Positions 3 to 14,567 of a stretch of 64,000 nucleotides of DNA are shown piece by piece. The notes beneath the pieces are model-generated. The model was not told the DNA's origin, ran no database searches, and was given only the letters and a program-made list of their open reading frames with translations. The DNA lies in the NCBI GenBank assembly GCA_021777035.1, contig JAIQZR010000099.1:1-64000 (forward strand). The letters run 5' to 3'. Both the position numbers and the translations under genes were made by a program. This DNA is from Candidatus Scalindua sp. (GTDB lineage: Bacteria; Planctomycetota; Brocadiia; Brocadiales; Scalinduaceae). Within the stretch, counting starts at the first letter, position 1. Each line of letters begins with the position of its first letter.

Positions 3-551
3 TTAAGCGAAACTCAAGACCCATCTAAAAAATCAACTTATAGAAACCATAAACGTCGTAGTGGACAGGCCGGTATAGTGAGAGACGGTACCAGACTTTC
101 CTATGGGCCGTATAAATTAAAGTGGAGAAAAACATTTCTAAGGGAACTTCTGTCTGCCCAGAAACAGATCCAGGAAGAAAGGCCAGAGATTGCATTCTCA
201 GCCATATCAATTGATGAGCTGGAAATGATCAGGCAAATCTGGCGTAAAGAAGAACATGACTGGCAGGATTCTGTACCTGTAGTCTATAAAGAAGTAAACG
301 GTGAAGATTATCCAATAACTCATGAAGACGGAGTTGCTTTTACCATGGATGATCATAAATTGCTGGAAAAACATTGTGAGAGTGACATGCAGGTAGACCT
401 AATAGCAAGGCTTATTGATTTAGAGAGAAACATGGAGGGTATGTCACGTCGGGCTGGTATTATCAACAAAATCAACAAAATATTTAATGAAGAATGGCGA
501 CCAGAGAAAGAGATTCAAGAAGAGTTGAAAACCCAGGGAATGAATAAATGA
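3..551 (+). CDS. dndC: DndC, C-terminal part (phosphorothioation sulfurtransferase)
   Basis: The reading frame is already open at position 3, so the gene begins upstream and only the last 182 residues are present. DndC is the PAPS-reductase-like, Fe-S cluster ATP pyrophosphatase that activates the DNA backbone and works with DndD and DndE to insert sulfur from DndA. The visible part has the family tail: a G-x-R-L-S-Y-G segment (about window residues 29-35) followed by R-x-x-x-L-x-x-L-L and helical, charged sequence. The catalytic N-terminal domain is outside the window. The stop overlaps the dndD start (ATGA), showing translational coupling. Identity rests mainly on the match to the DndC C-terminus plus dndD and dndE immediately downstream. 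An internal GTG at 78 could be mistaken for a start, but the frame continues upstream of it. Confidence 0.85.
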   Translation, partial: LSETQDPSKKSTYRNHKRRSGQAGIVRDGTRLSYGPYKLKWRKTFLRELLSAQKQIQEERPEIAFSAISIDELEMIRQIWRKEEHDWQDSVPVVYKEVNGEDYPITHEDGVAFTMDDHKLLEKHCESDMQVDLIARLIDLERNMEGMSRRAGIINKINKIFNEEWRPEKEIQEELKTQGMNK

Positions 552-2563
552 TCATAAATAAAATTATAATAGATAACTATGGTGTTTTCTGCGGTCGACA
601 CGAATTTGTACTTCATTCAGACAAACAAACTAAAAAGCCGAAACCAATAATCCTATTTGGTGGGATGAACGGTGCTGGTAAGACTACTCTGTTTAATGCA
701 ATCAAATTATGCCTCTATGGGGATGAAATTCCCGACCAAAAAAAGAATGGAAACTATAAAGCATTTTTAAAAGACAAAATACACCAATCAGGAGATTTGC
801 TTATACAGTCAAATTATGCGTCTGTTGAAATAGAGTTCCAATATTCAAAGAATGGAAGACTAAACACTTTCGTGGTTGAAAGGCAATGGGAAGGAGACCA
901 AGGTAAAATTATAGAGAACCTTAATGTAAAGCAAGACGGTGAGTGCTTAGATGAGCTAGAGAAGGAGAGCTGGCAGGAGTTTGTAAAAGAACTTATTCCA
1001 GTAGGTTTATCTCAACTGTTTTTCTTTGACGGAGAAAAAATCCAGAAGATGATGTCTGACGACAGTAATAAAGAATTTAAGAAGTCAATTAAAGCGATGT
1101 TTGGCCTGGATCTAGTGGAAAGGTTAAAAGCAGACTTGAAAATATACAGGACTAAATATTTAATGGAAAAGTCTTCAAAACCGCTTGAAATGGAACGGGA
1201 TGAGTTAGAAAACAAATTGCGCTTAATTCAGGCAAATAAGAGGATGTTAGAGGATCAGAAATCGACGTTAACAAACGATGTAAAAAAAACAGAAAACATA
1301 ATAGTAGAATATAAAGACAAAATTACTAGCCAAGGTGGAAACTATCTGGAAAATAGAGAATCCTTGATTTCAATGAAATTAACTCTTGAAAAGGAGATTG
1401 AGGTTGTAAAGGAAAAGCTCAGAGACTTATGTTCCGGCCTTTTGCCTGTATCACTTGCACCAACGCTTGCAAAGAGATTAAGATCACAAATAATAAAGGA
1501 AAATGAATTTAAAGATAATAAGATAGCATCAAAACTACTATCTCAAAAGAGTCGTACCTTCTTAAAGAGAATAAACAGTAAAGTCTTTTTGAGTGATGTA
1601 CTAGATCTGAAGAGTGTAGATTTAAAGAAAATAAAAAAACACCTTGAAGAAGAGATTAAGAACCATTTTGATGGAGAAGACAATCAGGAGAAACTTAAAA
1701 TACTACATGGCATGTCACAACAACAAACCTCTATTATTTCCTACAATATTGATAGTTCATTAAATGGCATACCAGACAAGATTAATAATTTAACCAAAGA
1801 ATACGAAAGAAAATTTCGCAAATTACAAAAAACTCAAGTTGGTATACAAAGAGTACCTGATGATGAATTGGTGAGACCAATGTATGATAGGCTCAATGAG
1901 TTGTATAAAGAGTCTGGAGGGTTAGAAAGTGAAATGAAAGGGCTTGATGAGAAATTGGGACAACTTAATAATGATCAAAATGAGATTGGAAGGAAGATAT
2001 CTCAAGTAGATTCTAAACTGGAAGAAAACAACAAATCCGATATGAAGCTTCTGCTCGTAAAGAAAACGGAAAAAGTGATTGATGCTTACTATAAGGATCT
2101 TGCCAGGCTAAAAAGCCATAACCTTACAAACGAGTTTACTAATATCTTTAACAGCCTTCATAGGAAAAAAGATATGATTCACAGAATCGAGATTAATCCA
2201 GAGACTTTTGATGTATGTTTATATGATATAAATAATAGGGCTATTGACAAGCATAAGCTATCCTCGGGTGAAATGGAAATCTATGCAATGTCAATGGTTT
2301 GGGGTTTGGCAAAAATTTCAGGACAAAATCTTCCGTTCATCATAGATACACCTCTGGGACGTCTAGACTCGCACCATAGAGATAACATCCTGAATATCTT
2401 CTTTCCAAATGCATCACATCAAATGTTAATCTTCTCTACTGATACGGAAGTAGACAGAAAGAACTTCGAGATTCTTAAGCCACATATTTCTTCAGCATTT
2501 CATCTTGAACACAGTGATAAAGAAAAGAATACCAAAGTCAAGAAAGGATATTTCTGGAATTAA
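548..2563 (+). CDS. dndD: DndD, SMC-like ATPase of DNA phosphorothioation
   Basis: This 671-residue ATPase belongs to the Rad50/SMC-like ABC class. The Walker A motif GGMNGAGKT is at residues 39-47, followed by FFFDGEKIQ (158-166), long coiled-coil heptads (about 190-520), the ABC signature LSSGE (about 571) and Walker B FIIDTP (about 597). DndD supplies the ATP-driven DNA handling or nicking needed for sulfur insertion with DndC and DndE. Length and layout fit the family. It overlaps dndC by 4 nt and precedes dndE by only 5 nt, so it is inside one operon. A second DndD-like ATPase on the opposite strand (6668-8638) shares the FDGEKIQ and DTPLGR motifs. Confidence 0.93.
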   Translation: MIINKIIIDNYGVFCGRHEFVLHSDKQTKKPKPIILFGGMNGAGKTTLFNAIKLCLYGDEIPDQKKNGNYKAFLKDKIHQSGDLLIQSNYASVEIEFQYSKNGRLNTFVVERQWEGDQGKIIENLNVKQDGECLDELEKESWQEFVKELIPVGLSQLFFFDGEKIQKMMSDDSNKEFKKSIKAMFGLDLVERLKADLKIYRTKYLMEKSSKPLEMERDELENKLRLIQANKRMLEDQKSTLTNDVKKTENIIVEYKDKITSQGGNYLENRESLISMKLTLEKEIEVVKEKLRDLCSGLLPVSLAPTLAKRLRSQIIKENEFKDNKIASKLLSQKSRTFLKRINSKVFLSDVLDLKSVDLKKIKKHLEEEIKNHFDGEDNQEKLKILHGMSQQQTSIISYNIDSSLNGIPDKINNLTKEYERKFRKLQKTQVGIQRVPDDELVRPMYDRLNELYKESGGLESEMKGLDEKLGQLNNDQNEIGRKISQVDSKLEENNKSDMKLLLVKKTEKVIDAYYKDLARLKSHNLTNEFTNIFNSLHRKKDMIHRIEINPETFDVCLYDINNRAIDKHKLSSGEMEIYAMSMVWGLAKISGQNLPFIIDTPLGRLDSHHRDNILNIFFPNASHQMLIFSTDTEVDRKNFEILKPHISSAFHLEHSDKEKNTKVKKGYFWN

Positions 2564-2568
2564 ATAAT

Positions 2569-2934
2569 ATGGAATTCAAGCGGATAAAACTATCTCAGGA
2601 ATCAACAAACAAATTAAGGACGTTTAAGTCAAGAACTGGCTTGACACCTAACATTTCCTGTAGAATGGCCTTGTCTTTGTCAATGAATGAAAACAACATG
2701 CCATCATTAGAGCTATATAGTGATGATACAGGCCAGGAGATAAATCGTTATACATTTCTGGGAGACCAAGAGCTGATACTTCTGTCTCTGTTTACTCAAT
2801 GGTGCTATGAGAACAATGTGAAAAAGAAAAACTATTACGAGTATCTGCTTGCCCATATTAACCGGGGAGTAGAGATGCTAACAAATAGAGTAAAAGGGCT
2901 TGATGGTCTGCTTGAACTTCTGAAGAATAACTAA
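2569..2934 (+). CDS. dndE: DndE, DNA-binding subunit of phosphorothioation
   Basis: This 121-residue protein begins with the DndE pattern I-K-L-S-Q-x-S-x-x-x-L-x-x-x-K-x-R-T-G-L-T-P-N, in which the lysine-rich helix is the DNA-contact surface, then A-L-S-L-S. Length matches known DndE proteins (about 110-120 residues). DndE binds nicked double-stranded DNA and works with DndC and DndD. It starts 5 nt after dndD and ends 6 nt before the cysteine desulfurase, so the four genes are a single transcription unit. No signal peptide or membrane segment is visible, consistent with a cytoplasmic role on DNA. Confidence 0.9.
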   Translation: MEFKRIKLSQESTNKLRTFKSRTGLTPNISCRMALSLSMNENNMPSLELYSDDTGQEINRYTFLGDQELILLSLFTQWCYENNVKKKNYYEYLLAHINRGVEMLTNRVKGLDGLLELLKNN

Positions 2935-2940
2935 CTTGCC

Positions 2941-4098
2941 ATGACCAAACCAATATACCTCGACCATAACGCTACCACTCCACTGGACAAGAGAGTTCTA
3001 GACAAGATGATCCCATATTTTTCTGAAGTATATGGGAATGCCTCAAGTATTGACCATCTTCATGGTCATCATGCCAAACAAGCCGTTCAACAAGCACGTG
3101 AAGATATTGCGAAGATCTTAGGGTGTCGAAAGAGTAATGAAATTATCTTTACTAGTGGAGCTACCGAATCAAACAATCTTGCTTTGATTGGGGTATTTCG
3201 TAAATATAAAGACAAAGGCAACCATATCATATCTTCTGCCATAGAACACCCATGCGTGCTTGACACATTGGAGTTTCTTAAAGGAGAGGGGGCTGATGTG
3301 ACATTGTTACCGGTAGACAAATATGGATTTGTCAGTACTAAAGATCTGGAGGCCACTATTAAAGATGATACGATACTCATCTCAATAATGTTTGCTAACA
3401 ATGAGATTGGGACTATAGAACCAATTAAGGAAATTGGGGAAATAGCAAAAGCTAACAATATTTTATTCCATACCGATGCGGCTCAAGCTGTTGGTCACAT
3501 AAAAGTAGATGCATATGAAATGAATGTAGATCTGCTTTCATTCAGTGCGCACAAGTTCTATGGGCCTAAAGGTGTTGGTGGCCTTTTTGTCAGAACATAT
3601 TCTCCTTTTATTAAATTGAGTCCAATCTCTTTTGGAGGTGGTCATGAACGCGGAATGAGATCTGGAACACTTAATGTACCTGGAATTATTGGTATGGCAG
3701 AAGCTCTTAATATTGCTTCCAGGGAAATGGACAAGGAAAACAAGAAGAATTGTAAACTGACAAAAAAGATACTAACAAAACTAAAGCAGACTTTTCCTGA
3801 TATAGAGCTTAATGGTGACCAAAAGAAAAGACTGTCACACAATTTGAATATTACAATTCCTGGTGTAGAGAATAAAGCTCTTATTCATATATTAAAAGAC
3901 AAACTGTCTTTTTCTACAGGCTCTGCCTGTACAACAACTAAAGTTAAACCATCTCACGTGATAACAGCACTAGGATACGACGAGGAAAGAGCTTATTCGT
4001 CCATCAGATTCGGGTTAGGAAGATTTACAACAGAAGAAGAGATTGATATCACAATTGATGCTCTTACTAAAGCAGTAATAAAACTAAGAAATATGTAA
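2941..4098 (+). CDS. dndA: DndA-type cysteine desulfurase
   Basis: This is a PLP-dependent class V aminotransferase-fold enzyme of the NifS/IscS family, 385 residues. It opens with P-I-Y-L-D-H-N-A-T-T-P and carries H-T-D-A-A-Q near residue 177. The Schiff-base lysine lies in S-A-H-K (K205) and the persulfide cysteine in G-S-A-C-T (C330). It removes sulfur from L-cysteine and passes it as persulfide to DndC. It lies 6 nt after dndE as the last gene of the + strand operon, so the order is dndC-D-E-A. Many bacteria place dndA divergently or borrow iscS, and the C-D-E-A order is the one reported for archaeal phosphorothioation loci. An unrelated IscS is unlikely given the operon position. Confidence 0.9.
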   Translation: MTKPIYLDHNATTPLDKRVLDKMIPYFSEVYGNASSIDHLHGHHAKQAVQQAREDIAKILGCRKSNEIIFTSGATESNNLALIGVFRKYKDKGNHIISSAIEHPCVLDTLEFLKGEGADVTLLPVDKYGFVSTKDLEATIKDDTILISIMFANNEIGTIEPIKEIGEIAKANNILFHTDAAQAVGHIKVDAYEMNVDLLSFSAHKFYGPKGVGGLFVRTYSPFIKLSPISFGGGHERGMRSGTLNVPGIIGMAEALNIASREMDKENKKNCKLTKKILTKLKQTFPDIELNGDQKKRLSHNLNITIPGVENKALIHILKDKLSFSTGSACTTTKVKPSHVITALGYDEERAYSSIRFGLGRFTTEEEIDITIDALTKAVIKLRNM

Positions 4099-4449: not shown

Positions 4450-6234
4450 TTATAATGGCCAAATAGCTTTCATTAATGAGTTTACATGATGTTGTCCGCT
4501 CATTATTTCCGTCTTCCCCCAAGAAGTTTTGGCGTTATTATGATTATAAAATTCCTTAACCATTTCAAAATCAGTTACTCGTTGAAGGATTTCTAATTTT
4601 TCAGAAATAATTTTTTGTTCCAAAGTGTTATTAGTTTTAATTTTCACTAATAGCAGATTACCTAAACGCCAATAGAGTTCTTCGTGATCTTCACGTGTTA
4701 CACCAAACTTCGACAAATCCTCTGTTCTGACATTTTCTGGTAAAATATGTTCAATACTCAATCGTCTGCCGTAAATTATTGGAACACAACCTTTACTTCT
4801 TCTTATTTCATTCTCAATTTTACTCAAAATGAATCTAATAAGAGGCTTTTTGGCATTCTTGCCAAATCCTGTCAAATACAAGTCAATCTTTGAGTCATTG
4901 ATTTTATGGCGATCTTCTAGCATCTCTGACTTTAAATTATCTAATGTATAGTCAGCAGAATTTCGTACTTTCACTGAAAGGTAGTTTACTATCTTTAATA
5001 ATTGGTCTGGAGAATGGTTGACAATAATCTTATATCTGAAAACAAAACTTTCAACCAATTTTAAGAAAGAAAACTTATCAGAAAGCTCCGTATATACTGA
5101 TAAGCCAGCAAGGATCAAAGGATTAATCCTTTGAATCTTCAGTGTAGCAATATCGGAATATATTCTCTTTAATTCATCATTTGGATCATTATTGATTTCA
5201 TTAGGAAAAAGGATCTCCGAATAGTGAAATGATTCATTATAGAGTGAATCAAAATATGATTGCAAAAGGGAAGATGTAACTCGTTTTTTAACTATCTTAT
5301 ATAATCCATGCTTTACGCTGTCATCTGGTTGGAGAGGATGCCGTGATATGAAGTTATCTTTTATATAGTCAACTATCCTAACTTCACTTACATTTTCTAT
5401 AATTTTGTTCCATTTTTCAAAATTATCTTCAATATCATCTGGGCCTAGACCCTCTAACACATAAACTTTAATCAAATCCGCCTCAGAAAGAGGTTCTGCC
5501 CGACTATTAACCGTTTCAAAAACAACAGCAGCTTTCTCTTCAGAATCAATAGTTATCTGCACAAAATCTAATCCGTCTTTAAGTGTGTAATATAGGATTT
5601 TCAATAATTTCACTTTTTCAATATCGGACTTTCCTTCAATATGGTCAGATACTTTTCCCAACAGGTAAAAAAAACAGTCCCGAATTTTTTCATAAGATTT
5701 TATTTTTCTACTTGCAGAAAAAGAATTCATGTCTGTTTTGATTTTTTCAAGATCTGTTTCCTCTGAAAGGATAAAAGAAGAAAAGAAATTCTTGTCAAAG
5801 AATCCCATTTCTAGTCTATCACCTGTTTTTTTTGCTTCGTCATCAGTAAAGCATAAATAATTTCTGAATATTGTTTTTGAGAGCTCTTTTGCAAATTCTT
5901 CATTAGATTGGTTTAGTAGTTGCCGTATTATTGAGAGAAAGATTAGAATCGTTGAAATACGCTGCTGGCCATCAAAAACTTTTTTTGTAACTCCGTCTTG
6001 AACAAAAATAAACAAGCCCATGAAGTGATTATCTTGAAACTTTAATTCGTTAAAATTCGAATTATGCATTAGCTGGCCTTGGATACTATTGCTATTTATA
6101 CAATCTAGTATGTCTATCCAGAAATTATCCCACTCATCACATTCCCAAGCGTATGGTCTCTGAAGAAGTGGAACAGAAAACATTAAGTTTTCTCCAAATA
6201 AATCCTTTAAAGTAATAAATTGCAAGTTACTCAT
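4450..6234 (-). CDS. DUF262/DUF1524 GmrSD-type nuclease
   Basis: This 594-residue protein has the two-domain layout of GmrSD/SspE-type defence nucleases. The N-terminal DUF262 domain carries V-P-x-x-Q-R-P-Y-A-W (residues 21-30) and the NTPase signature F-D-G-Q-Q-R (87-92). The C-terminal DUF1524 His-Me (HNH) domain carries S-I-E-H-I-L-P-E-N (493-501), then G-N-L-L-L and a trailing N. Relatives hydrolyse NTP and cut modified or invading DNA. SspE, which works with phosphorothioation, is of this general type. It is the last gene of the minus-strand operon, 22 nt after the 133-residue gene. Its position beside dnd genes suggests a PT-responsive effector, which is inference. Confidence 0.85.
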   Translation of the reverse strand: MSNLQFITLKDLFGENLMFSVPLLQRPYAWECDEWDNFWIDILDCINSNSIQGQLMHNSNFNELKFQDNHFMGLFIFVQDGVTKKVFDGQQRISTILIFLSIIRQLLNQSNEEFAKELSKTIFRNYLCFTDDEAKKTGDRLEMGFFDKNFFSSFILSEETDLEKIKTDMNSFSASRKIKSYEKIRDCFFYLLGKVSDHIEGKSDIEKVKLLKILYYTLKDGLDFVQITIDSEEKAAVVFETVNSRAEPLSEADLIKVYVLEGLGPDDIEDNFEKWNKIIENVSEVRIVDYIKDNFISRHPLQPDDSVKHGLYKIVKKRVTSSLLQSYFDSLYNESFHYSEILFPNEINNDPNDELKRIYSDIATLKIQRINPLILAGLSVYTELSDKFSFLKLVESFVFRYKIIVNHSPDQLLKIVNYLSVKVRNSADYTLDNLKSEMLEDRHKINDSKIDLYLTGFGKNAKKPLIRFILSKIENEIRRSKGCVPIIYGRRLSIEHILPENVRTEDLSKFGVTREDHEELYWRLGNLLLVKIKTNNTLEQKIISEKLEILQRVTDFEMVKEFYNHNNAKTSWGKTEIMSGQHHVNSLMKAIWPL

Positions 6235-6256: not shown

Positions 6257-6658
6257 CTACTTGTCCCAATAATATTTTTTGCAATGATCGATGAGAAGGT
6301 AAATATGATCACCACCTGTCTCGGTCAGTGTGTCATACAAAGTGGAGAAGCCGGAATTTGCTAGTTCATTCACGATGTCTATTATCTTCTCTTCCTTCAA
6401 AAGGATGTATGGATCCTTTGTGTGTGCTAATGCAATGTACTTCATTACATTTTGCTCTTTTTGAGAAAGATTTGAATATCGAATTATTTCATGTTTGTTA
6501 TTAATGCTTTTAGATGTAAGATTCAGCCTTAGTGATATTATTGCTGCAACTAAATGGACACTTTTTTGGGTAGAAAATGCCTTGCGACTTTTTATGCCCT
6601 TAGATATTTCCTTATATCTACTTTCGTTATCTTTGTCAATTATTAGGCCAATAGCCAT
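6257..6658 (-). CDS. Unknown 133-residue protein of the defence operon
   Basis: I do not recognise this protein by sequence. It is 133 residues, mainly helical and charged, with no signal peptide or membrane segment. Its start is well supported: a GAGG ribosome site lies just upstream of ATG at 6658, directly after the TGA of the DndD-like ATPase (9-nt gap). The order DndD-like then small helical protein mirrors dndD-dndE on the other strand. Faint likenesses to DndE (a basic N-terminal helix, an A-x-x-x-S-L segment, and R-Y-x-x-L followed by a hydrophobic helix) make a DndE-like partner conceivable but unproven. Confidence 0.7.
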   Translation of the reverse strand: MAIGLIIDKDNESRYKEISKGIKSRKAFSTQKSVHLVAAIISLRLNLTSKSINNKHEIIRYSNLSQKEQNVMKYIALAHTKDPYILLKEEKIIDIVNELANSGFSTLYDTLTETGGDHIYLLIDHCKKYYWDK

Positions 6659-6667
6659 CTTAAATCC

Positions 6668-8638
6668 TCATTTAATTTGAATAATGTCTGTGCACCCATT
6701 ATCTTCGTTGTATTCCAATTTATATTCTCTACCTACGCTTTTAGAAATAACCTTTTCTGTTTCTTCTCCAGGTCTAACTTCTTCGTAGGTTACAAACAAT
6801 ATAACTTGCTCCAGTAGTTCTGGAAGTGTTTTAAGAATTTGAACTCGTGGGTCAATAAGTTCTCCTGGATCCTTTGATATTCTTCCAAGAGGTGTATCTA
6901 CAATGAAAGGTGCTTCTTTTCCTGTGACACGTGCTAAAGCTATGACAAAAGCTAAACTAAAACACTGCCTTTCGCCAGCAGACAATCCCTCTCTTGCCAA
7001 TCTATCATTTTTGTCATAAATATCTAAGACATAGTTGTCTTGCATGATTACTTGCCTGTAATGATCCTTCTTCCACATGAATTCAGAGAAAACATTTTGT
7101 GTTTCCTTTCTTACTTTCTCTTTTGTTTCTTTCTCATAGATACCATATAACTTATTTAGTTCATCCATAATCAATTTTGTATAAGACTGATATTTTCTCA
7201 ACTCTTCATTTTCTTTTTCGTTTGCCTTCAGCTTATCTGCAGTTTTTTCATATGATTTTAAGTCTTCTTCTAGTTGTTCTCTCTCAACCTCGTTTCTCAT
7301 CTTTTCTCGTACTTCTTCTTGAACTTTCATCTCTACTCTCTTTTTCTCTTCTTCTTTTAGAGCAACAGTTTCTACATCCGAATTTTTAAGGTAATCGCTG
7401 ATTTCTTTTAGTTTTTCACTAATATCATCTATTGATTTTCGAGCCTGATTATCTTCGTCAATCTTTTGGAGTAAATTTGATATTGTATTTCTGGATTCAT
7501 TCTCTAAGTTTGTAATATCTAGAGGGATCTTTGTGACTAAATTATGTAGCTCAGTATTCTGTCTACTGATTAATGCAGTAAGCTCTTGTATCTCGTTGTC
7601 ATTAATGCCCTTCTTTAAAGACCTTTTACATATGCATTCTTCATTTTCTAATATCTTTTTAATAAACTCTGCTCTAATAGGAGCTGGAATTTCGCCTTGT
7701 TCCTCTAGTGAGCTATAAACTTTTGATACTTCATCAAAAATATCATTCATCATGGTTACATATATCTGTTCTGTGTTACTAGACAAGTCCGCCTTTATGC
7801 CTTCACGCTCTGATTTTATTATTTCAAGCTGTTCCTTAAGCTCTTTTTCTCTCTTAACATATTCCTTTACTTTATCTATTGACGCTTGTTCATTTTCTAG
7901 TTTTTGTATTAGTTTCTGCCCTTTTGAGATCTCATCGAGCCTTTTTCTTATATTGAGAGAAAGCTTGCTTATTGCATCCTTTGCACCTTCAACTTTGGCA
8001 ATTATATCTTGCAACTCTTTGCTTTTAGTACATTTGCTAATATCTCTGTTATATTCTGCATCTATTTTTTTTAGTGTTTCGATAGTCTTTTCAATGTCAT
8101 CAAAGCCAAGGAGCCCTTTAATTGCATCTTGTATTTCAATTTCATGTCCACATTTTGAATAGTTTTGGATTTTTTCACCATCAAACATAAAATACTTTCT
8201 TAGTTTCTTAGGCAAAATAGAGTTCATTTCCAATTCTGGTTCATTAATACGTTCGGGATCCCCCACTCCTTCCTCTTTGAGGACTATAAATGTATTTTTG
8301 TTCTCTGTGTTACCATTAAAAGCACTAAATTTACGAGTAAGATGATATTTATTCTGTTCGTGTTCAAAAATAATTTTTACAGAAGTATCAATTGAATTGT
8401 TCTCTTTAGATTCTGTAAAAGCGATAGAATTCATAATATCGCTGTTTGCAGTGCTCACCTCATCATACTCTTCCTCGCCATAGAAGCACCATTGGATGGC
8501 ACTAAATAATTTTGTTTTTCCTGCACCCATTGCACCATGTACAAGTGTTACATTTCCATCTTGTGAAGATGCAAATTCAAGTTCATGAGTGCCATAATAT
8601 GACCGAAAATTATTTAACTGTATTGAAATCAATCTCAT
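6668..8638 (-). CDS. DndD-like SMC/AAA ATPase (second copy type)
   Basis: This 656-residue protein has a RecF/Rad50/SMC-type layout. Walker A GAMGAGKT is at residues 35-42, MFDGEKIQ at 151-158 and coiled coil at about 180-540. A C-I-C-K motif at the coiled-coil turn (around 333-337) resembles a zinc-hook or CxxC-type apex. The ABC signature G-L-S-A-G-E is at 551-556 and Walker B FIVDTPLGR at 578-586. The FDGEKIQ and DTPLGR motifs are shared with the DndD encoded at 548-2563, so this is a DndD-family relative, yet it belongs to a different operon. Its start overlaps the stop of the preceding 52-residue gene (ATGA). It likely acts as an ATP-dependent DNA sensor or loader for the operon's helicase and nuclease, which is inference. 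Confidence 0.88.
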   Translation of the reverse strand: MRLISIQLNNFRSYYGTHELEFASSQDGNVTLVHGAMGAGKTKLFSAIQWCFYGEEEYDEVSTANSDIMNSIAFTESKENNSIDTSVKIIFEHEQNKYHLTRKFSAFNGNTENKNTFIVLKEEGVGDPERINEPELEMNSILPKKLRKYFMFDGEKIQNYSKCGHEIEIQDAIKGLLGFDDIEKTIETLKKIDAEYNRDISKCTKSKELQDIIAKVEGAKDAISKLSLNIRKRLDEISKGQKLIQKLENEQASIDKVKEYVKREKELKEQLEIIKSEREGIKADLSSNTEQIYVTMMNDIFDEVSKVYSSLEEQGEIPAPIRAEFIKKILENEECICKRSLKKGINDNEIQELTALISRQNTELHNLVTKIPLDITNLENESRNTISNLLQKIDEDNQARKSIDDISEKLKEISDYLKNSDVETVALKEEEKKRVEMKVQEEVREKMRNEVEREQLEEDLKSYEKTADKLKANEKENEELRKYQSYTKLIMDELNKLYGIYEKETKEKVRKETQNVFSEFMWKKDHYRQVIMQDNYVLDIYDKNDRLAREGLSAGERQCFSLAFVIALARVTGKEAPFIVDTPLGRISKDPGELIDPRVQILKTLPELLEQVILFVTYEEVRPGEETEKVISKSVGREYKLEYNEDNGCTDIIQIK

Positions 8639-8793
8639 TTTTTACAATCTCTTTCAATAATTTCAATAATCTCTTTTTTTAAATTGTGATCTTTGTGACG
8701 AGCGAAACGAAGTATATTGATTATTGTTGTAGACAATTCCTCCGTTGTACCCAATTTTTTAATTAGAATCTCTTGTATTTCATTTAAATTCAT
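8635..8793 (-). CDS. Small 52-residue protein between helicase and DndD-like ATPase
   Basis: This short frame (52 codons plus stop) begins ATG at 8793 with an N-terminal sequence M-N-L-N-E-I-Q-E-I-L-I and ends in TGA overlapping the ATG of the DndD-like ATPase (ATGA). It lies 14 nt after the helicase stop, so without it there would be an unusual 170-nt hole in an otherwise gapless operon. The product is acidic and helical with no signal peptide. I recognise no family. Its size and coupling to the ATPase suggest a small accessory subunit, by analogy only. Confidence 0.65.
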   Translation of the reverse strand: MNLNEIQEILIKKLGTTEELSTTIINILRFARHKDHNLKKEIIEIIERDCKK

Positions 8794-8807: not shown

Positions 8808-10895
8808 TTATATATTTGGTATAGTCAAGTATTTATCTAATATCTGATTCAATTCCTTCATTACTGTAAGCCCATTTATTGAGTTCTCGGCAAACAAAAA
8901 TGCTCGATCAATTTCTTTGCGTAGTATTTGCTTGTCGACGTCGGTTATCCTATCACACACCTTTGGTCGAGGCAAAACAATAAAGTCGTGAATTACCGCC
9001 TTGTCTTTACTTCCGTCCTTTAGTTTTCTAAGCACTCTTCCTCTGCGTTGCACATATTCCGTTGGATTAGTACTACTAGAAAGAATGAATGCTTCTCTTA
9101 TAATAGGAACGTCAAGCCCTTCGTTAAAGATATTCATTGATGTCAATATCTGATATATTCCTGTTCTAAAGTTATTTAAGATTTCGTTCTTCTCAGTTTG
9201 ATTTTCCTCTCCGGTAAACCTATGTGAAATTATCCCTGAGCCTTTTAACATACTTGCTACCTTATCAAGTTCCTTTGTGTCTGGTGCACAGAATACAATT
9301 GTATGTTTTATATCCTTTCTTCTCTTCTGGACAATTTCCTTAAATCTAACAACTTTCATTATCGCTGTTTTTAATACTTTTGCTCTTGAATTGAGTAGAC
9401 CACTTAGTTTTTTATTACTCTTTAAGATTGCATCAAAGTTGTCTTTGCTGGAAGGCCTGAACATTTGCTTGATCTTGTTAGTTATTTCCTCATATTTTTC
9501 AGTCTCCTCCTCTGTCAAATATATCTGGTGAATGTAGTATTCATACGGGCATAAGAAACCTTCTTGAATTGCCTTTTTCAGGTCAAATGTGAATATAGTT
9601 GATCCTAGCAATGATTCTACAAATCGAGTACCTTCATCATCAAAGAATCTTGTTGGTGTTGCGCTTAGGCCAAGTGTAAAATCATAATCCCTATAGATGC
9701 TCTCTATTGCACCAGTTGATCCCAAATGATGGCATTCATCTGCAACCAATAAAACCTTTATTTCGTCTCTGTTTATTCTATTTAAGAGTTTTTCAAATGA
9801 GTTGTTTTTCAATGTTTCGTGTGTTGATACAATCGTTAAATACTTTTCTAATTTCAGATTGACCCTTGAGATCCCATCAGAAACCTGTCGCCTCCAACTG
9901 GAGTTCTCTGAGCTGCAAATAATCGGTTTTAGATTAAATTCATGACATTCATCTGCCCACTGATTTACTAACGATTTCGTTGGACACGATATAATGGTAA
10001 CTATGCCATCTACCTGCTTTGCAAGACGACATAATCCAAAAAGTGCAGTCTTGGTTTTTCCAGTTCCAGTTGCCATTTCTAGCACCCCTCGCATCGCATT
10101 ATCAAGCCAAGCTTGAATCGCCTTCTCCTGGTAATGCCAGGGAGTATGTCCTTCACAAGAATGTGGCTTGTCTGAAATTTGTTTTCTCTTTGTTGAAAGC
10201 AAACTGTAAGGTCTAGAAAAATCTCCTTTTAGTGATTTAATGTTCTCCAATGCAATGTCTGGTACATTAATAATCCTCAGATTTCGATCTTTGTTTTCCC
10301 AGATTCGCTGGAAAAGTATTTCCTTTTGTTGAATAATACCCATTGAGCTTTCATCAAAGCTATTGAAGATGGCAAGTTCTTCATAGTTTATGTTTGCATG
10401 TGCGGTGTCATTATAAGAACCCATAAACATTATTTTTGAGTCATCAATATCCTTAAATATTCCAAACTTTACATGAAAATCTCCACCAAATAACTTGTTC
10501 TTGGGAATTGCAATCTTAATATCCATAATGTTGTCTGCAATAAGCCAGGAAAGTGCAACACGAGTATCTTCTCGCAAGTCTGTTTTCAACTGCTCAATAC
10601 TTCTAGACAAGGCCTGATAGATTATTTCATTTTCTTCAGCTTCACTCCCTAATAAAATTGCTTCTAAATCATCCTTATTGAGATAGGGGCTTGTTAACAA
10701 CCTTATCTTCCCCCCTCTTTCAACCAATGGGATGATTGCTTGAGAGATTTCTTTAAGCCACCCAGAAGTAAAATAGCCAACACCACGGTCATATGTTATG
10801 GCCTCAGACAATACTGGAATAAAGAAATCCTTAGCTAAACTATGATTAGAAGAATCTAATATTTTTGGAATGTTTTTCAAATCAGAAAATGTCAT
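8808..10895 (-). CDS. Phospholipase D-like/SF2 helicase fusion protein
   Basis: This 695-residue protein has an N-terminal PLD-like domain. Its H-V-K at 141-143 lies in F-H-V-K-F-G-I-F, followed by the downstream M-G-S-Y-N-D and Y-E-E. A superfamily 2 helicase core follows: ATGTGKT (275-281), a DECH box (386-389), SATPTR (411-416) and Q-R-R-G-R-V-L-R (616-623). Only one HxK half-site is obvious, so the PLD domain may dimerise or bind rather than cut. Similar PLD-helicase proteins occur in restriction and defence loci, where they translocate on and cleave or remodel DNA. Its ATG follows the stop of the upstream 789-residue gene with no gap (TAG-ATG). Classical DndH differs in layout, so this is not simply DndH. 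Confidence 0.88.
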   Translation of the reverse strand: MTFSDLKNIPKILDSSNHSLAKDFFIPVLSEAITYDRGVGYFTSGWLKEISQAIIPLVERGGKIRLLTSPYLNKDDLEAILLGSEAEENEIIYQALSRSIEQLKTDLREDTRVALSWLIADNIMDIKIAIPKNKLFGGDFHVKFGIFKDIDDSKIMFMGSYNDTAHANINYEELAIFNSFDESSMGIIQQKEILFQRIWENKDRNLRIINVPDIALENIKSLKGDFSRPYSLLSTKRKQISDKPHSCEGHTPWHYQEKAIQAWLDNAMRGVLEMATGTGKTKTALFGLCRLAKQVDGIVTIISCPTKSLVNQWADECHEFNLKPIICSSENSSWRRQVSDGISRVNLKLEKYLTIVSTHETLKNNSFEKLLNRINRDEIKVLLVADECHHLGSTGAIESIYRDYDFTLGLSATPTRFFDDEGTRFVESLLGSTIFTFDLKKAIQEGFLCPYEYYIHQIYLTEEETEKYEEITNKIKQMFRPSSKDNFDAILKSNKKLSGLLNSRAKVLKTAIMKVVRFKEIVQKRRKDIKHTIVFCAPDTKELDKVASMLKGSGIISHRFTGEENQTEKNEILNNFRTGIYQILTSMNIFNEGLDVPIIREAFILSSSTNPTEYVQRRGRVLRKLKDGSKDKAVIHDFIVLPRPKVCDRITDVDKQILRKEIDRAFLFAENSINGLTVMKELNQILDKYLTIPNI

Positions 10896-13265
10896 CTATT
10901 GCCCTAACAAATGTCCATATTGCGAAGAGAAGTCGTTTATTCTGTTGATACTAGTAGAAATTTTATTTCTTCTAAGATAAACCTCTAAAGACTCTTTGGT
11001 AAATCTAATACCCGAATTTTTAACTATTTCAAGTATTATGTCATTAATTGTTTTAATATTGTCTGCTGATGGAGGTAATACGGCTATATCAGAAATCACC
11101 CCTAATTCAGAGTGTTTTCTTATAATAGTAGATAGCAAAGATCTATTCCAATGACAGGGGTCGACTGGAGGTAAATCCAAGACCTTCAGTAAATTATGTA
11201 AAAGAACATACTTTTTACCGTTTATTTCCTTGCATATTTCAAGCAATAACTCCTTTACTGCCTTGTCTGTTAACTTAATTACTTTCCTATGTATCCATCT
11301 CCCAGCACCAACCTTGTATATATTCAAAGACCTCGCAATCACGTTCGATATCTGATAATAAACTAATCCTCTCTTGTTAATAAAATAAGCTTCTATGTCC
11401 TGCCAAAAAAGCTCTTTATCAGCTTTAAGAAAATAATTATCTACTTCGTCATTTAATTGTAGCCTTTCTTTTGACAAATTCTCTGTACTTTCAATATCAG
11501 GATATTTTCTGTAAACATATAAATCATTGTTATGAATCCTCAGGCAACTATAAAGTGCATATTGGTTTGGAATTCCAAGATAGTCCATTAACGCTTTATT
11601 ATTTTTATAAATATGCTGTACAGAAGTTTTTCTGCTTAGGTTGTCTACGGCTCCATCAATTTTTTCATACACTCTATCGAATTCATCAAAGTTTATATTG
11701 ATATTATCGGTGTGAATATAAGTTCCTCTTCCCCACATTACCGCATTCATAACCCTGTCAATAGATCTTGGCGAATTACTAGGTTTACCGTTACAAAATC
11801 GGTTACAATAAAGTTCTGTAAGCTCGCTTTGATGCAATCCATGTATATGTGATCTAATAAGATACTCTAGGTTTAATAATATTTTGTTTTTAATACCTAC
11901 TAATATACTATCTTCAAATAGACCTTCTCTGCTGAGGAATAAATCTATACAAATATCCTCGACATTCTGATCATATGTTATATCCAATTTCAAATATTCG
12001 CGTATTTGACTTTTATCTAGCCCAAGTAGATTTCCACTTTCATCAATTAGGTCATTATAAGCATTGCTAATATCCTTGTCTCTGTATAATGAAAGAAAAG
12101 ACTCCCCATCTAGTGAAACTCGGTATATTTTTCTTTCCGACAAACATAGATAGAATTCAATCATTAACTCATAAATATCCTTTTCCAGGAAAACGTCATT
12201 TGTTAATGTTAAATTATAGAAATCGTTAGATGTTATAACCCCCTTATTCCTAAACAGTTCATCAAGGTGTAGTTCAAAATATGTCATTAGGTTTTCTTTA
12301 AATGGATATAAGTGAATTTTTTTCTCATAATCCCTGCATAATTGCCTCACTCTTTCTCTAGTAATACTTTCTCGTTTGCCTGTTTCCTCTAATGTCATTG
12401 GTTGACCGCCAACTCCATGTCTCAATTTGAATATCTTTAATCCTCTAGGCTCAAGAATTTTAAAAATTATTTTTAACGCTTTAACTTGTGTTTGTGTCAT
12501 ATCTTCTATCTGATCATTCTGAACACAAAGGAAATCTCTTATGCCTTTTAATTCTGTACTTGTCAAATTCAGTCCTACTAACTTCTTTTTTATTTCACCT
12601 CTTTCTAAATCAATTTTAGATTTAGATGTAATTATTAAACCTCTTAACAAATGAAAACAACTTATACCTCCTGAAATATTTTCTGAAACAACACCTTCTC
12701 GTCTGTCTAATAATTCAATACTATCTAATGTATCCACGAGAGATTTTTCTCCAAAATTCTTTTCTGTAAGCAAATCGGATATGGATGTTTCAAGTAAGTC
12801 TCCAATATTAGATATATTTAATTTGTTTAGACAATCCTTAGTTCTTGCAGGAAAACTAACAGATGCAATAGGTATTTTTAGAGTAGACTCATTAATAATC
12901 TTAATTCTTTGTTTAAGCAATACAGTTTCATTAGTAAAATTATAATCAACATTTAAACTGATATCTTCAGTCGTAAAATGTGCTTCTATATTGTTAATTA
13001 CATTTTTCACTTCATCCAAACACGTAGCCCCAAAATTCCTAATCTCCTTAAGGTCTTCTAGATCTTCTAGTTCTAGAAGTTGTCCTATCGTTTTGAACCC
13101 CTCTTCAAGTAAACAATTTGTCGTTCTTCTGGAAAACATTTCTTCAGTTATTTTAATATTATTATAATCGCAAGCATTATCATCATCATTTTTGTTTGAA
13201 GATTCTGACTCCTCTTTTTTATAGCCACTAATTCCTGAATATATTTTTCTAAGCAAATTTAACAT
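10896..13265 (-). CDS. Large protein with RNAP alpha-CTD-like and sigma region 4-like domains
   Basis: This 789-residue protein is unusual. Residues 44-91 and 138-186 are each like the RNA polymerase alpha-CTD helix-hairpin-helix fold, with I-G-x-L-L then a N-F-G-x-x-x-L-x-x-x motif. Residues 276-317 look like sigma-70 region 4, with L-R-H-G-x-x-x-x-P-M-T-L-E-E-T-G, then I-T-R-E-R-V-R-Q-L. The remaining 470 residues are helical and I recognise no catalytic motif. It is the first gene of the defence operon and abuts the helicase gene. The architecture suggests DNA binding or contact with RNA polymerase or promoters. The start is uncertain: a TATAAT overlaps the ATG (TATAATG) and no ribosome site is visible. 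The next in-frame Met is residue 43, just before the first domain. Confidence 0.82.
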   Translation of the reverse strand: MLNLLRKIYSGISGYKKEESESSNKNDDDNACDYNNIKITEEMFSRRTTNCLLEEGFKTIGQLLELEDLEDLKEIRNFGATCLDEVKNVINNIEAHFTTEDISLNVDYNFTNETVLLKQRIKIINESTLKIPIASVSFPARTKDCLNKLNISNIGDLLETSISDLLTEKNFGEKSLVDTLDSIELLDRREGVVSENISGGISCFHLLRGLIITSKSKIDLERGEIKKKLVGLNLTSTELKGIRDFLCVQNDQIEDMTQTQVKALKIIFKILEPRGLKIFKLRHGVGGQPMTLEETGKRESITRERVRQLCRDYEKKIHLYPFKENLMTYFELHLDELFRNKGVITSNDFYNLTLTNDVFLEKDIYELMIEFYLCLSERKIYRVSLDGESFLSLYRDKDISNAYNDLIDESGNLLGLDKSQIREYLKLDITYDQNVEDICIDLFLSREGLFEDSILVGIKNKILLNLEYLIRSHIHGLHQSELTELYCNRFCNGKPSNSPRSIDRVMNAVMWGRGTYIHTDNININFDEFDRVYEKIDGAVDNLSRKTSVQHIYKNNKALMDYLGIPNQYALYSCLRIHNNDLYVYRKYPDIESTENLSKERLQLNDEVDNYFLKADKELFWQDIEAYFINKRGLVYYQISNVIARSLNIYKVGAGRWIHRKVIKLTDKAVKELLLEICKEINGKKYVLLHNLLKVLDLPPVDPCHWNRSLLSTIIRKHSELGVISDIAVLPPSADNIKTINDIILEIVKNSGIRFTKESLEVYLRRNKISTSINRINDFSSQYGHLLGQ

Positions 13266-13301: not shown

Positions 13302-13508
13302 TTAATTCCAGTATTTACCTTTCGGAGGGACAACAAATCTTATCCCACATTTAGGATCTGAAAGATCATTGTGATAACGAGGAATCACATGAAAATGAAG
13401 TTGTTCAATAGTTTGTCCAGCAGCCACACCATCTATTCCGGAATTAAATCCATCAGGCTTTGCATTATGGGATATGATTCGTGTGTTATGAGTACCTCTT
13501 ATTACATG
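13302..13508 (-). pseudogene. HIT-family protein, C-terminal remnant
   Basis: The minus-strand frame ending at 13302 encodes 68 residues with the histidine-triad core. It shows K-P-D-G-F-N, then A-A-G-Q-T-I-x-Q-L-H-F-H-V-I-P-R-Y and a normal-looking end. HIT proteins are about 110-150 residues, and here the frame is cut upstream by a TAG at 13509. Just beyond it, a different frame reads Y-Y-T-A-T-V-E-E-L-V-S-M, which could be the displaced preceding segment. The gene therefore appears decayed by frameshift and N-terminal loss. HIT proteins are nucleotide hydrolases, but this one should be non-functional. It sits at the degraded edge of the defence island. Confidence 0.75.
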
Positions 13509-13509
13509 C

Positions 13510-14179
13510 TAACAAGTTCTTCTACGGTTGCTGTATAGTAACGAATTTTATAGTAAATCTGAGTTGTTTCAAGTGTATTCTCAATAGTCATATGGCTGTA
13601 TAGTATCTTCCATGTAAAGTTATCCTGATCGATTAATCATAGGGATGCATGGTTAGAGGGGTTAAATACTTTTCATAACCAGATTTGGTCAGCAATAGAA
13701 CCTTTTTGTTTTGCAAGTTAGTTTACTTCAATATCATAAAGCATGTTCCATATCCAAGGTTTAAACCAAATCATTTTGTGAAGTGTTTTTCTTGTTAATA
13801 GCTGTAAATAGTCTCGCAATATCACAAATAAATTAATCACACAATAAACGAAATCAATACTATCAAGCAAATTGAGGAAAAATGATACTCAACGTCTGGC
13901 TGAAATCAAGAGGCAAACTATACTCCCATCAACTTTTTCTAACATTGTAGAAAATTATTTGATGACTGTTCGGAAGATCTTATATGTAGGAAAGATGGAA
14001 TGTTGATACTTTTACTTTGAAACACAATTTAGCGAAAGAATCCGGTGTCCATATAGTGTCTATTGAAGAGCTAAATTGAGGTAAAATCACCTAACAGAAT
14101 CTATACAGAAACAATAGATAATGTTAGGTGGTTAAAGGACTTGTGTGTGATATCAACGACTTAGGGAAATATACTGAAT
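13510..14179. other. Degraded non-coding stretch at the island edge
   Basis: I see no intact gene here. Short frames occur (for example + strand around 13850-14010) but none has a recognisable domain or start signal. Base composition is strongly AT-rich. The stretch lies between the HIT remnant and the half-tRNA and reads like decayed accessory DNA. Confidence 0.5.
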
Positions 14180-14222
14180 CAGATTAGAAATCTGATGCTC
14201 TATCCGGCTGAGCTACTGGCGC
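14180..14222 (-). pseudogene. 5' half of tRNA-Arg(TCT)
   Basis: The reverse complement begins GCGCCAGTAGCTCAGCCGGA, a good tRNA acceptor 5' strand and D-arm. It continues with the anticodon arm CAGATTTCTAATCTG, whose anticodon TCT reads Arg. The similarity stops immediately after the anticodon stem: no variable loop, T-arm (GGTTCGA) or acceptor 3' strand follows. It is a truncated tRNA gene, as often left where an integrative element used the tRNA as attachment site. The defence island lies on the truncated side. Confidence 0.75.
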
Positions 14223-14567
14223 TTAGTTCGCAAACCCCTTATTGTACAAATACTTACACAAACAATATCTCTTGTGAAAACTCATTGAGATCCTTCAAAA
14301 CAGCCGATATCATTGTACTTTTCACCGAAAGTGTAACAATCTTAAGGTTATTATTCTGAAATGACTACACAGACAGCCAAAACTGAACAATAACTTTGAG
14401 CATCCTATATTAGTTAAAAATTTAAATAATACAACTAAAAAAACTTGTATAGAGCATGCCAACCAAACAGCGACTTTTTTATTGACCTATAAACTTTATA
14501 CTAATAAATAGCTGAGAATGGAATCTATAATATGCCAATTTTAGTTTTGTGATATTGTTGGCTTACA
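14223..14567. other. Intergenic stretch without a gene
   Basis: This 345-bp AT-rich stretch lies between the half-tRNA and the aldolase gene. I see no ORF, clear terminator or repeat in it. Confidence 0.5.

What the first reader, a model, noticed from the sequence alone, without database searches (positions are those of the whole stretch)
10896..13265. Defence protein combining two alpha-CTD-like HhH domains and a sigma region 4-like HTH
Residues 44-91 and 138-186 each carry the I-G-x-L-L and N-F-G pattern of alpha-CTD, and residues 276-317 carry P-M-T-L-E-E-T-G plus T-R-E-R-V-R-Q, the sigma region 4 promoter-binding helix pattern. All are in one 789-residue protein whose remaining 470 residues are unknown. 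Transcription-machinery mimicry in an anti-phage operon suggests detection of promoters, hijacking of polymerase, or use of these folds as plain DNA binders beside a helicase. I know no described member with this exact layout.
Basis: partly seen in the sequence, partly recalled or inferred. Interest (0 to 1): 0.78.

Follow-up and report, generated by a model that had tools for sequence, protein, structure and literature searches.

The report
Polymerase-derived DNA reader beside PbeA nuclease-helicase
A bacterial anti-virus gene cluster carries an undescribed but widespread extra protein that strings together the parts of RNA polymerase that recognise promoters with a row of other DNA-binding modules, and it is probably the part that tells the neighbouring DNA-attacking enzyme where to land.

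Summary
The 789-residue protein X (10896-13265, minus strand) has two alphaCTD domains (Pfam E=2e-23) and a sigma70 region 4 (E=5e-7). All ten -35-DNA residues checked are kept. The "unknown" C-terminus is modelled as four tandem winged helices (wHTH), preceded by a poorly modelled stretch (about 330-459). X is not a one-off. It is the first gene of X-pbeA-pbeB-pbeC-pbeD-GmrSD, a PbeABCD (CxC ABC-ATPase) operon facing dndCDEA. In a PbeA-anchored genome scan, 39 of 71 scorable loci carry an X relative immediately 5' of pbeA, usually with a 1- or 4-bp overlap, in Alphaproteobacteria, Verrucomicrobia, Desulfuromonadales, Bacilli and Actinobacteria. The sample favours X-linked PbeA. X co-varies with PbeA/PbeC rather than DndD. 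The front end varies (alphaCTD+sigma4, HhH arrays, or an Lsr2-type DNA-binding domain); the wHTH end is shared. Best explanation: an uncatalogued fifth, DNA-targeting subunit of bacterial Pbe systems that reads promoter-like or AT-rich DNA for the PbeA HKD-helicase. It cannot be a sigma factor or alpha subunit (no sigma2, no alphaNTD). Function is inferred; no experiment exists. Novelty: new component of a known system.

The parts
10896..13265 (-). X: 789-aa alphaCTD-alphaCTD-sigma4-(wHTH)4 protein, first gene of the operon
12981..13160 (-). alphaCTD-like HhH domain 1 (res 36-95); keeps E. coli R265, N268, C269, N294, G296, E302
   Evidence: Pfam; alignment; AF2; Foldseek
12696..12890 (-). alphaCTD-like HhH domain 2 (res 126-190); keeps R265, C269, N294, G296, K298, S299
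12291..12482 (-). sigma70 region 4.1-4.2-like domain (res 262-325)
   Evidence: Pfam; PDB phmmer to 1tty E 5e-6; AF2
12342..12362 (-). -35 recognition-helix motif TRERVRQ (res 302-308 = E. coli sigma70 T583-Q589); most conserved columns of the family
11712..11885 (-). winged-helix domain 1 (res 461-518)
   Evidence: AF2 secondary structure
11487..11690 (-). winged-helix domain 2 (res 526-593)
11289..11486 (-). winged-helix domain 3 (res 594-659)
11079..11267 (-). winged-helix domain 4 (res 667-729)
   Evidence: tandem array resembles the SelB C-terminal wHTHs
8808..10895 (-). pbeA: HKD/PLD nuclease + SF2 helicase (TIGR04095-like), abutting X with no gap
   Evidence: PADLOC PbeA E 7e-208
8635..8793 (-). 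pbeB: 52-aa small protein, by position; homologous to a small ORF in L048
   Evidence: no PADLOC match
6668..8638 (-). pbeC: CxC-type ABC ATPase (EECICKR hook)
   Evidence: PADLOC PbeC E 2e-96; sequence
6257..6658 (-). pbeD: 133-aa second DndE-like gene, by position; homologous to ORFs in L053 and L056
   Evidence: no PADLOC match
4450..6234 (-). GmrSD-type (DUF262 + HNH) effector, last gene of the operon
   Evidence: Pfam GmrSD_N 2.6e-26 and GmrSD_C 1.2e-10; PADLOC HEC-06/Orf5
78..551 (+). dndC, C-terminal part (contig begins at window base 1)
   Evidence: PADLOC DndC 1e-39
548..2563 (+). dndD
   Evidence: TIGR03185 2.8e-152, above cut-off
2569..2934 (+). dndE
   Evidence: PADLOC DndE 5e-33
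2941..4098 (+). dndA/IscS-type cysteine desulfurase
   Evidence: PADLOC DndA 2e-161

Best explanation
X is a fifth subunit of a bacterial PbeABCD-type (CxC ABC-ATPase) defence complex and acts as its DNA-targeting subunit. Shown by sequence: it is encoded immediately upstream of pbeA, is co-inherited with PbeA/PbeC, and is a string of DNA-binding modules. Inferred: the N-terminal front end (two alphaCTD-like domains plus a sigma4 that keeps the -35-reading residues) docks on promoter-like or AT-rich DNA, much as RNA polymerase reads an UP element plus -35 box. Inferred: the C-terminal winged-helix array, the part shared with short versions that lack the front end, contacts more DNA and/or couples to PbeA/PbeC. 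PbeA (helicase + HKD nuclease) is thereby loaded at such sites, and the attack proceeds only where the host mark (PT from DndCDEA, or cytosine methylation in other loci) is absent. The front end is exchangeable (alphaCTD+sigma4, HhH arrays, Lsr2 DNA-binding domain), as expected of a target-recognition module. X is not a sigma factor or an alpha subunit.
For: Domains and folds. Gene order and coupling: 39 of 71 scorable PbeA loci have an X relative directly 5' of pbeA, and 37 of those 39 spacings lie within 10 bp, mostly 1- or 4-bp overlaps. With an HMM from only three sequences, 17 of 20 new hits in the scan lie directly upstream of pbeA. From the X side in Rhodobacterales, 3 of 3 X hits among 344 genomes sit next to pbeA. 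Co-variation: X-PbeA r=0.91, 0 of 2000 permutations; partial X-PbeA given DndD 0.72 versus X-DndD given PbeA -0.19. DNA reading: R584, R586 and Q589 equivalents are invariant, and R562, L573, E585 and R588 equivalents at least 90%, over 21 diverse members; these are among the ten most conserved columns of the whole protein. The alphaCTD 265-determinant is largely kept while the 261/287 protein-contact positions are not. The Lsr2 DNA-binding domain substitutes for alphaCTD/sigma4 in L095, L099 and L117, and is a separate gene in L085 and L074. Short pbeA-adjacent relatives keep only the C-terminal wHTH part.
Against: Archaeal PbeABCD works with four genes and no X (PMC6459918), and many bacterial PbeA loci here have none (32 of 71), so X is not universally needed. 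Conserved sigma4 residues are also what a promoter-bound regulator or an RNA polymerase binder would keep. Some members have lost the motif (L071, L120) or the whole sigma4 (Streptomyces forms). Sigma4+wHTH relatives also occur beside a UvrD-like helicase and a methyltransferase, not Pbe. No physical interaction or activity was tested. The X prevalence comes from a scan seeded with three X-linked PbeA sequences and is biased upward.
Confidence: 0.55

Rival explanations
1. X is a transcriptional regulator of its own operon: a repressor or sensor that occupies the -35/UP region of the pbe (or dnd) promoter and is released on infection.
For: It is the first gene of the operon, it is made only of DNA-binding domains, and sigma4 plus alphaCTD are the natural fit for a promoter upstream region.
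Against: It is very large for an autoregulator. It is translationally coupled to pbeA in almost all loci. In L128 a separate WYL regulator precedes an X-like gene and pbeA. Short versions without a front end stay locked to pbeA, and in Actinobacteria an Lsr2 domain replaces the front end.
Confidence: 0.22
2. X targets RNA polymerase or promoter complexes: sigma4/alphaCTD mimicry lets the system sense or sabotage phage transcription, for example by binding the beta flap or occluding phage promoters.
For: The sigma4 is of the primary-sigma type (matches SigA/RpoD) and includes region 4.1; transcription-machinery origin of two domains.
Against: alphaCTD positions that contact sigma (261) and activators (287) are not kept. 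Family-wide conservation concentrates on DNA-contacting residues. HhH arrays or an Lsr2 domain replace alphaCTD in relatives. Beta-flap surface residues were not scored.
Confidence: 0.13
3. The C-terminal wHTH/HARE-like array reads the DNA mark (PT or modified base), as proposed for DndG/SspB and HARE-HTH domains, and X is mainly the self/non-self discriminator; the RNA polymerase-derived part is a generic DNA anchor.
For: Four to five tandem wHTHs; weak HARE-HTH matches in 6 of 34 members; the triple-wHTH DndG/SspB precedent (PMC10853773).
Against: HARE-HTH matches are below Pfam's cut-off in the tables I saw, and the window protein has none. X occurs in PT-linked loci, in a locus with a C5 methylase (L069) and in loci with no dnd genes nearby, so a PT-specific reader is unlikely across the family. 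The wHTHs lack an identified sulfur pocket.
Confidence: 0.1

Closest known systems
PbeABCD / CxC ABC-ATPase-DndE system (Xiong et al. 2019, PMC6459918; reappraised in PMC10853773)
   Same: The window has pbeA (HKD+SF2 helicase), a small ORF, a CxC ABC-ATPase, a small DndE-position gene and convergent dndCDEA.
   Different: X is not among the four described genes, I found no mention of it in the readable text of either paper, and the archaeal system works without it. A GmrSD-type gene is added at the end.
PglW of type 2 BREX (PMC12839542)
   Same: An RNA polymerase alphaCTD-like domain followed by several wHTH modules in a defence protein; one of 34 X-like members hits PADLOC PglW.
   Different: PglW has kinase/NERD and STAND-like parts and no sigma4 as described; X has no enzymatic domain.
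MzaA (MZA system 'sigma factor')
   Same: Sigma70 region 4 in a defence protein; PADLOC/NCBIfam cross-match.
   Different: The match is confined to sigma4 (profile 601-657 of 683) and far below the NCBIfam cut-off (36 vs 800 bits); the operon differs.
DndG / SspB triple-wHTH DNA-recognition subunits and the sigma-HTH insert in gammaproteobacterial DndH (PMC10853773)
   Same: Tandem wHTH subunits of PT-linked restriction complexes; a sigma-type HTH precedent inside a Dnd restriction protein.
   Different: No sequence match to DptG/SspB models among the hits shown; X adds alphaCTD and sigma4 and belongs to the Pbe branch.
SelB C-terminal fragment (1lva), UFL1 (8b9x)
   Same: Foldseek's best matches for the tandem wHTH array.
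   Different: RNA- or protein-binding roles in translation/ufmylation; about 11-14% identity and weak E, so an architectural resemblance only.

Membership tests
PbeABCD (CxC ABC-ATPase) operon | PbeA: HKD/PLD nuclease fused to an SF2 helicase | tested here: met
   PADLOC PbeA E 7e-208; ResIII, Helicase_C and PLDc_2 domains
PbeABCD (CxC ABC-ATPase) operon | PbeC: DndD-like ABC ATPase with a CxC hook | tested here: met
   PADLOC PbeC E 2e-96...NEECICKRSL... in the sequence
PbeABCD (CxC ABC-ATPase) operon | Small PbeB and DndE-like PbeD between and after pbeA/pbeC | tested here: inconclusive
   52-aa and 133-aa ORFs in the right places, homologous to ORFs of other Pbe loci, but no PADLOC match
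PbeABCD (CxC ABC-ATPase) operon | X as a described component | tested here: not met
   Not named in the readable text of PMC6459918 or PMC10853773; no PADLOC/NCBIfam/Pfam full-length model. Figures and supplements not readable
Sigma70 factor | Region 4 with -35-contact residues | tested here: met
Sigma70 factor | Region 2 (core binding, -10 melting) | tested here: not met
   No region 2/3 match in Pfam or NCBIfam
RNA polymerase alpha subunit | alphaNTD for core assembly | tested here: not met
   NCBIfam rpoA models match only their C-terminal part
MzaA | Full-length match above the curated cut-off | tested here: not met
   36 bits vs cut-off 800; only sigma4 aligned
PglW | Kinase/NERD plus alphaCTD plus wHTH architecture | tested here: not met
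   E 0.049 on the alphaCTD only; no kinase domain
HARE-HTH proteins | PF05066 domain above the gathering score | tested here: not met
   Window X: none. Six of 34 relatives at E<=0.01, best 1.3e-4; matches shown lie below the 25.9-bit cut-off
Anti-phage defence protein | Measured protection against phage | not testable with these tools
   No experiment available; inferred from operon context

The most novel reading that the evidence does not exclude
Bacterial Pbe systems use a captured copy of RNA polymerase's upstream promoter-recognition set (two alphaCTDs and one sigma4 in one chain, in the order in which they lie on a promoter) to load a nuclease-helicase onto promoters. The defence would then attack any DNA that carries a usable promoter but lacks the host's backbone or base mark, so escape mutants of the target site would also lose transcription.
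Probability: 0.25. Interest if true: 0.85.

Novelty: new variant of a known kind. Interest (0 to 1): 0.58.

Why it matters
How PbeABCD chooses its target and stops the virus is unknown: no cleavage was seen in the archaeal system, while a later analysis argues for it (PMC6459918, PMC10853773). X gives the bacterial systems a conserved, modular DNA-recognition subunit that was missing from the four-gene picture. Its front end is recognisable enough to predict the DNA it binds (-35/UP-like or AT-rich). That makes target choice directly testable, and suggests that a laboratory reconstruction of bacterial pbeABCD alone could lack a subunit.

Tried and rejected
Direct relatives of X: none in plasmids or phages by tblastn with the full protein, and only rpoA/sigma cross-matches in 392 genomes of the phylum, so the search was re-anchored on PbeA. 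The C-terminal 465 residues alone found nothing in ten genomes. PbeA loci fetched from the order of L048's genome gave no X-HMM hit. X as a real sigma factor or alpha subunit: rejected (no sigma2, no alphaNTD). X as MzaA or PglW: rejected (domain-only matches). X as part of the Dnd modification module: rejected by co-variation and by X+ loci without dnd genes in the stretch held. X as a PT-only reader across the family: unlikely (L069 has a C5 methylase upstream). Foldseek E-values never passed 0.001, so folds rest on Pfam plus local superposition. The viral fold library gave mainly sigma-factor-like or low-quality hits. The 2012 HARE-HTH paper (PMC3272235) is not held; I recall that it discusses bacterial HARE-HTH fusions and could not check whether this architecture is mentioned there.

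Full report
What is there. The ORF at 10896-13265 on the minus strand encodes 789 residues. Pfam finds RNA_pol_A_CTD twice (E 2.1e-23) and Sigma70_r4 once (E 5.1e-7), above the curated cut-offs. Alignment to E. coli K-12 RpoA and RpoD gives scores of 69 and 78 (alphaCTD1, 2) and 82 (sigma4), against shuffled maxima of 42, 53 and 57. An AlphaFold2 model from 21 homologues (mean pLDDT 62.6) is locally confident at both alphaCTDs, at sigma4 and at four C-terminal winged helices (about 461-518, 526-593, 594-659, 667-729), and poor at about 321-459 and the N-terminal 32 residues. Foldseek superposes the front end on alphaCTD and sigmaA region 4 structures at 1.3-1.6 A, and the array on the SelB tandem wHTH fragment, though no E-value passes 0.001. 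A relative from Roseovarius (L065) models better (pLDDT 71.7), with HhH domains, sigma4 and five wHTHs mostly at 80-92.

Where it lies. X is the first gene of a minus-strand operon X-pbeA-pbeB-pbeC-pbeD-GmrSD, with pbeA abutting X (10895/10896). The operon converges on dndC'-dndD-dndE-dndA. dndC is cut by the start of the contig. PbeA and PbeC match PADLOC PbeA/PbeC strongly, and PbeC has the CxC hook. The operon has 33% G+C (X alone 31%) against 41% for the rest of the window, as expected of an acquired island.

It is a family. Direct searches with X failed, so I searched with PbeA. Two plasmids (Ruegeria sp. THAF33 and Pontibrevibacter) have dndCDEA, then a 1017-1026-aa 'sigma factor-like helix-turn-helix DNA-binding protein', then pbeABCD; this protein has HhH/alphaCTD, sigma4 and wHTHs and aligns with X. 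A genome scan with the three PbeA sequences gave 80 loci. An HMM from only three X sequences found 20 new relatives there, 17 of them directly upstream of pbeA. A wider HMM found an X relative immediately 5' of pbeA in 39 of 71 scorable loci, with 37 of 39 spacings within 10 bp and mostly 4- or 1-bp overlaps. About half of these, mainly Streptomyces forms, match only weakly (E 1e-4 to 1e-11) and lack alphaCTD/sigma4. The scan was seeded with X-linked PbeA sequences and keeps only the best 80 matches, so the fraction is an overestimate. Searching from the X side, 3 of 3 Rhodobacterales hits (344 genomes) and 4 of 8 Streptosporangiales hits (299 genomes) sit beside pbeA; the others sit beside a UvrD-like helicase, a methyltransferase and a large unknown protein.

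X belongs to the Pbe module. Pairwise distances of X and PbeA correlate at r=0.91 (35 loci, 0 of 2000 permutations). In 25 loci that also carry dndD, the partial correlation X-PbeA given DndD is 0.72 while X-DndD given PbeA is -0.19. Common descent inflates such correlations; the contrast between PbeA and DndD is the informative part. Ten of the 39 X+ loci show no dnd genes in the stretch held (some stretches are truncated), and L069 has a C5 cytosine methylase upstream.

What is conserved. Over 21 diverse members the equivalents of E. coli sigma70 R584, R586 and Q589 are invariant, and R562, L573, E585 and R588 are at least 90%; seven of the ten most conserved columns of the whole protein are these sigma4 positions. 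That such residues contact -35 DNA is established knowledge of sigma region 4. The alphaCTDs keep most of the 265 DNA-binding determinant between them and have lost the 261 and 287 protein-contact positions. Of 34 aligned members, 22 have Pfam Sigma70_r4 and 15 RNA_pol_A_CTD. Bacilli carry HhH arrays instead of clear alphaCTDs. L095, L099 and L117 have an Lsr2 DNA-binding domain, which L085 and L074 carry as a separate gene. L076, L086 and L091 have a 229-248-aa gene upstream of pbeA equivalent to only the C-terminal wHTH part of X. So the front end is exchangeable and the wHTH end is the constant part. alphaCTD and the Lsr2 DNA-binding domain both read AT-rich minor grooves (general knowledge), which hints at a common target type.

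How it most likely works. X lacks alphaNTD and sigma2, so it cannot take part in transcription as an alpha or sigma subunit. The simplest reading is a DNA-targeting subunit that brings the PbeA HKD-helicase and the CxC ATPase to promoter-like or AT-rich DNA, with the host mark protecting self. The steps shown are the domain content, the gene coupling, the co-variation and the residue conservation. DNA binding, partner binding and mark gating are inferred. The main rival is an autoregulator; a separate WYL regulator upstream of an X-like gene and pbeA in the viral contig L128, the strict coupling to pbeA and the minimal versions speak against it. Polymerase sabotage is possible but has no positive support.

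What is known. PbeABCD was described in archaea with four genes, all needed (pbeA only partly), and no X (PMC6459918). The 2024 reappraisal equates it with the CxC ABC-ATPase-DndE system and does not mention X in its text, though it reports a sigma-type HTH in some DndH and triple-wHTH subunits in DndG/SspB (PMC10853773). PglW of BREX combines alphaCTD and wHTHs (PMC12839542). The idea of transcription-derived DNA binders in defence is therefore not new. A conserved five-gene bacterial Pbe module with this subunit appears undescribed, within the limits of an open-access library without figures or supplements.

Noticed in passing
window 4450-6234 (-): A DUF262+HNH (GmrSD/HEC-06/Orf5, distantly SspE-like) gene closes the X-pbeABCD operon: a likely modification-sensing nuclease added to a Pbe system.
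   Followed up: partly
window about 13330-14230 (-): Upstream of X lie what looks like a HIT-family protein remnant (..LHFHVIPRYHNDLSDPK..) and a 5' tRNA-like fragment (gcgccagtagctcagccggatagagca...tctaatctgat) that ARAGORN does not call: possibly an island insertion scar.
   Followed up: no
L235-L239 (Streptosporangiales): A second group of about 614-633-aa sigma4+wHTH/HARE-like proteins; in four genomes it lies beside a UvrD-like helicase or large unknown protein and a SAM methyltransferase rather than Pbe: possibly another uncatalogued system.
   Followed up: partly
L003 (own genome C190): A 464-aa frame with several RpoA-CTD-like repeats, distinct from the RpoA-like L007: a multi-alphaCTD protein, and many genomes of the phylum have matches to both alphaCTDs in frames of about 450 aa.
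   Followed up: no
L128:5531-11917 (IMG/VR contig): WYL regulator, X-like protein (alphaCTD+sigma4, 1133 aa), PbeA and an ABC-ATPase-like ORF on a contig classed as viral: a phage-borne Pbe-like system.
   Followed up: partly
L060:7269-10001: The Geothermobacter X relative carries N-terminal Sel1 repeats, a further exchangeable front-end module.
   Followed up: no
L102:12130-14712 (-): In Sphingomonadaceae the X relative is on the opposite strand 3' of pbeA, where the order is pbeC-(pbeD)-pbeA.
   Followed up: no
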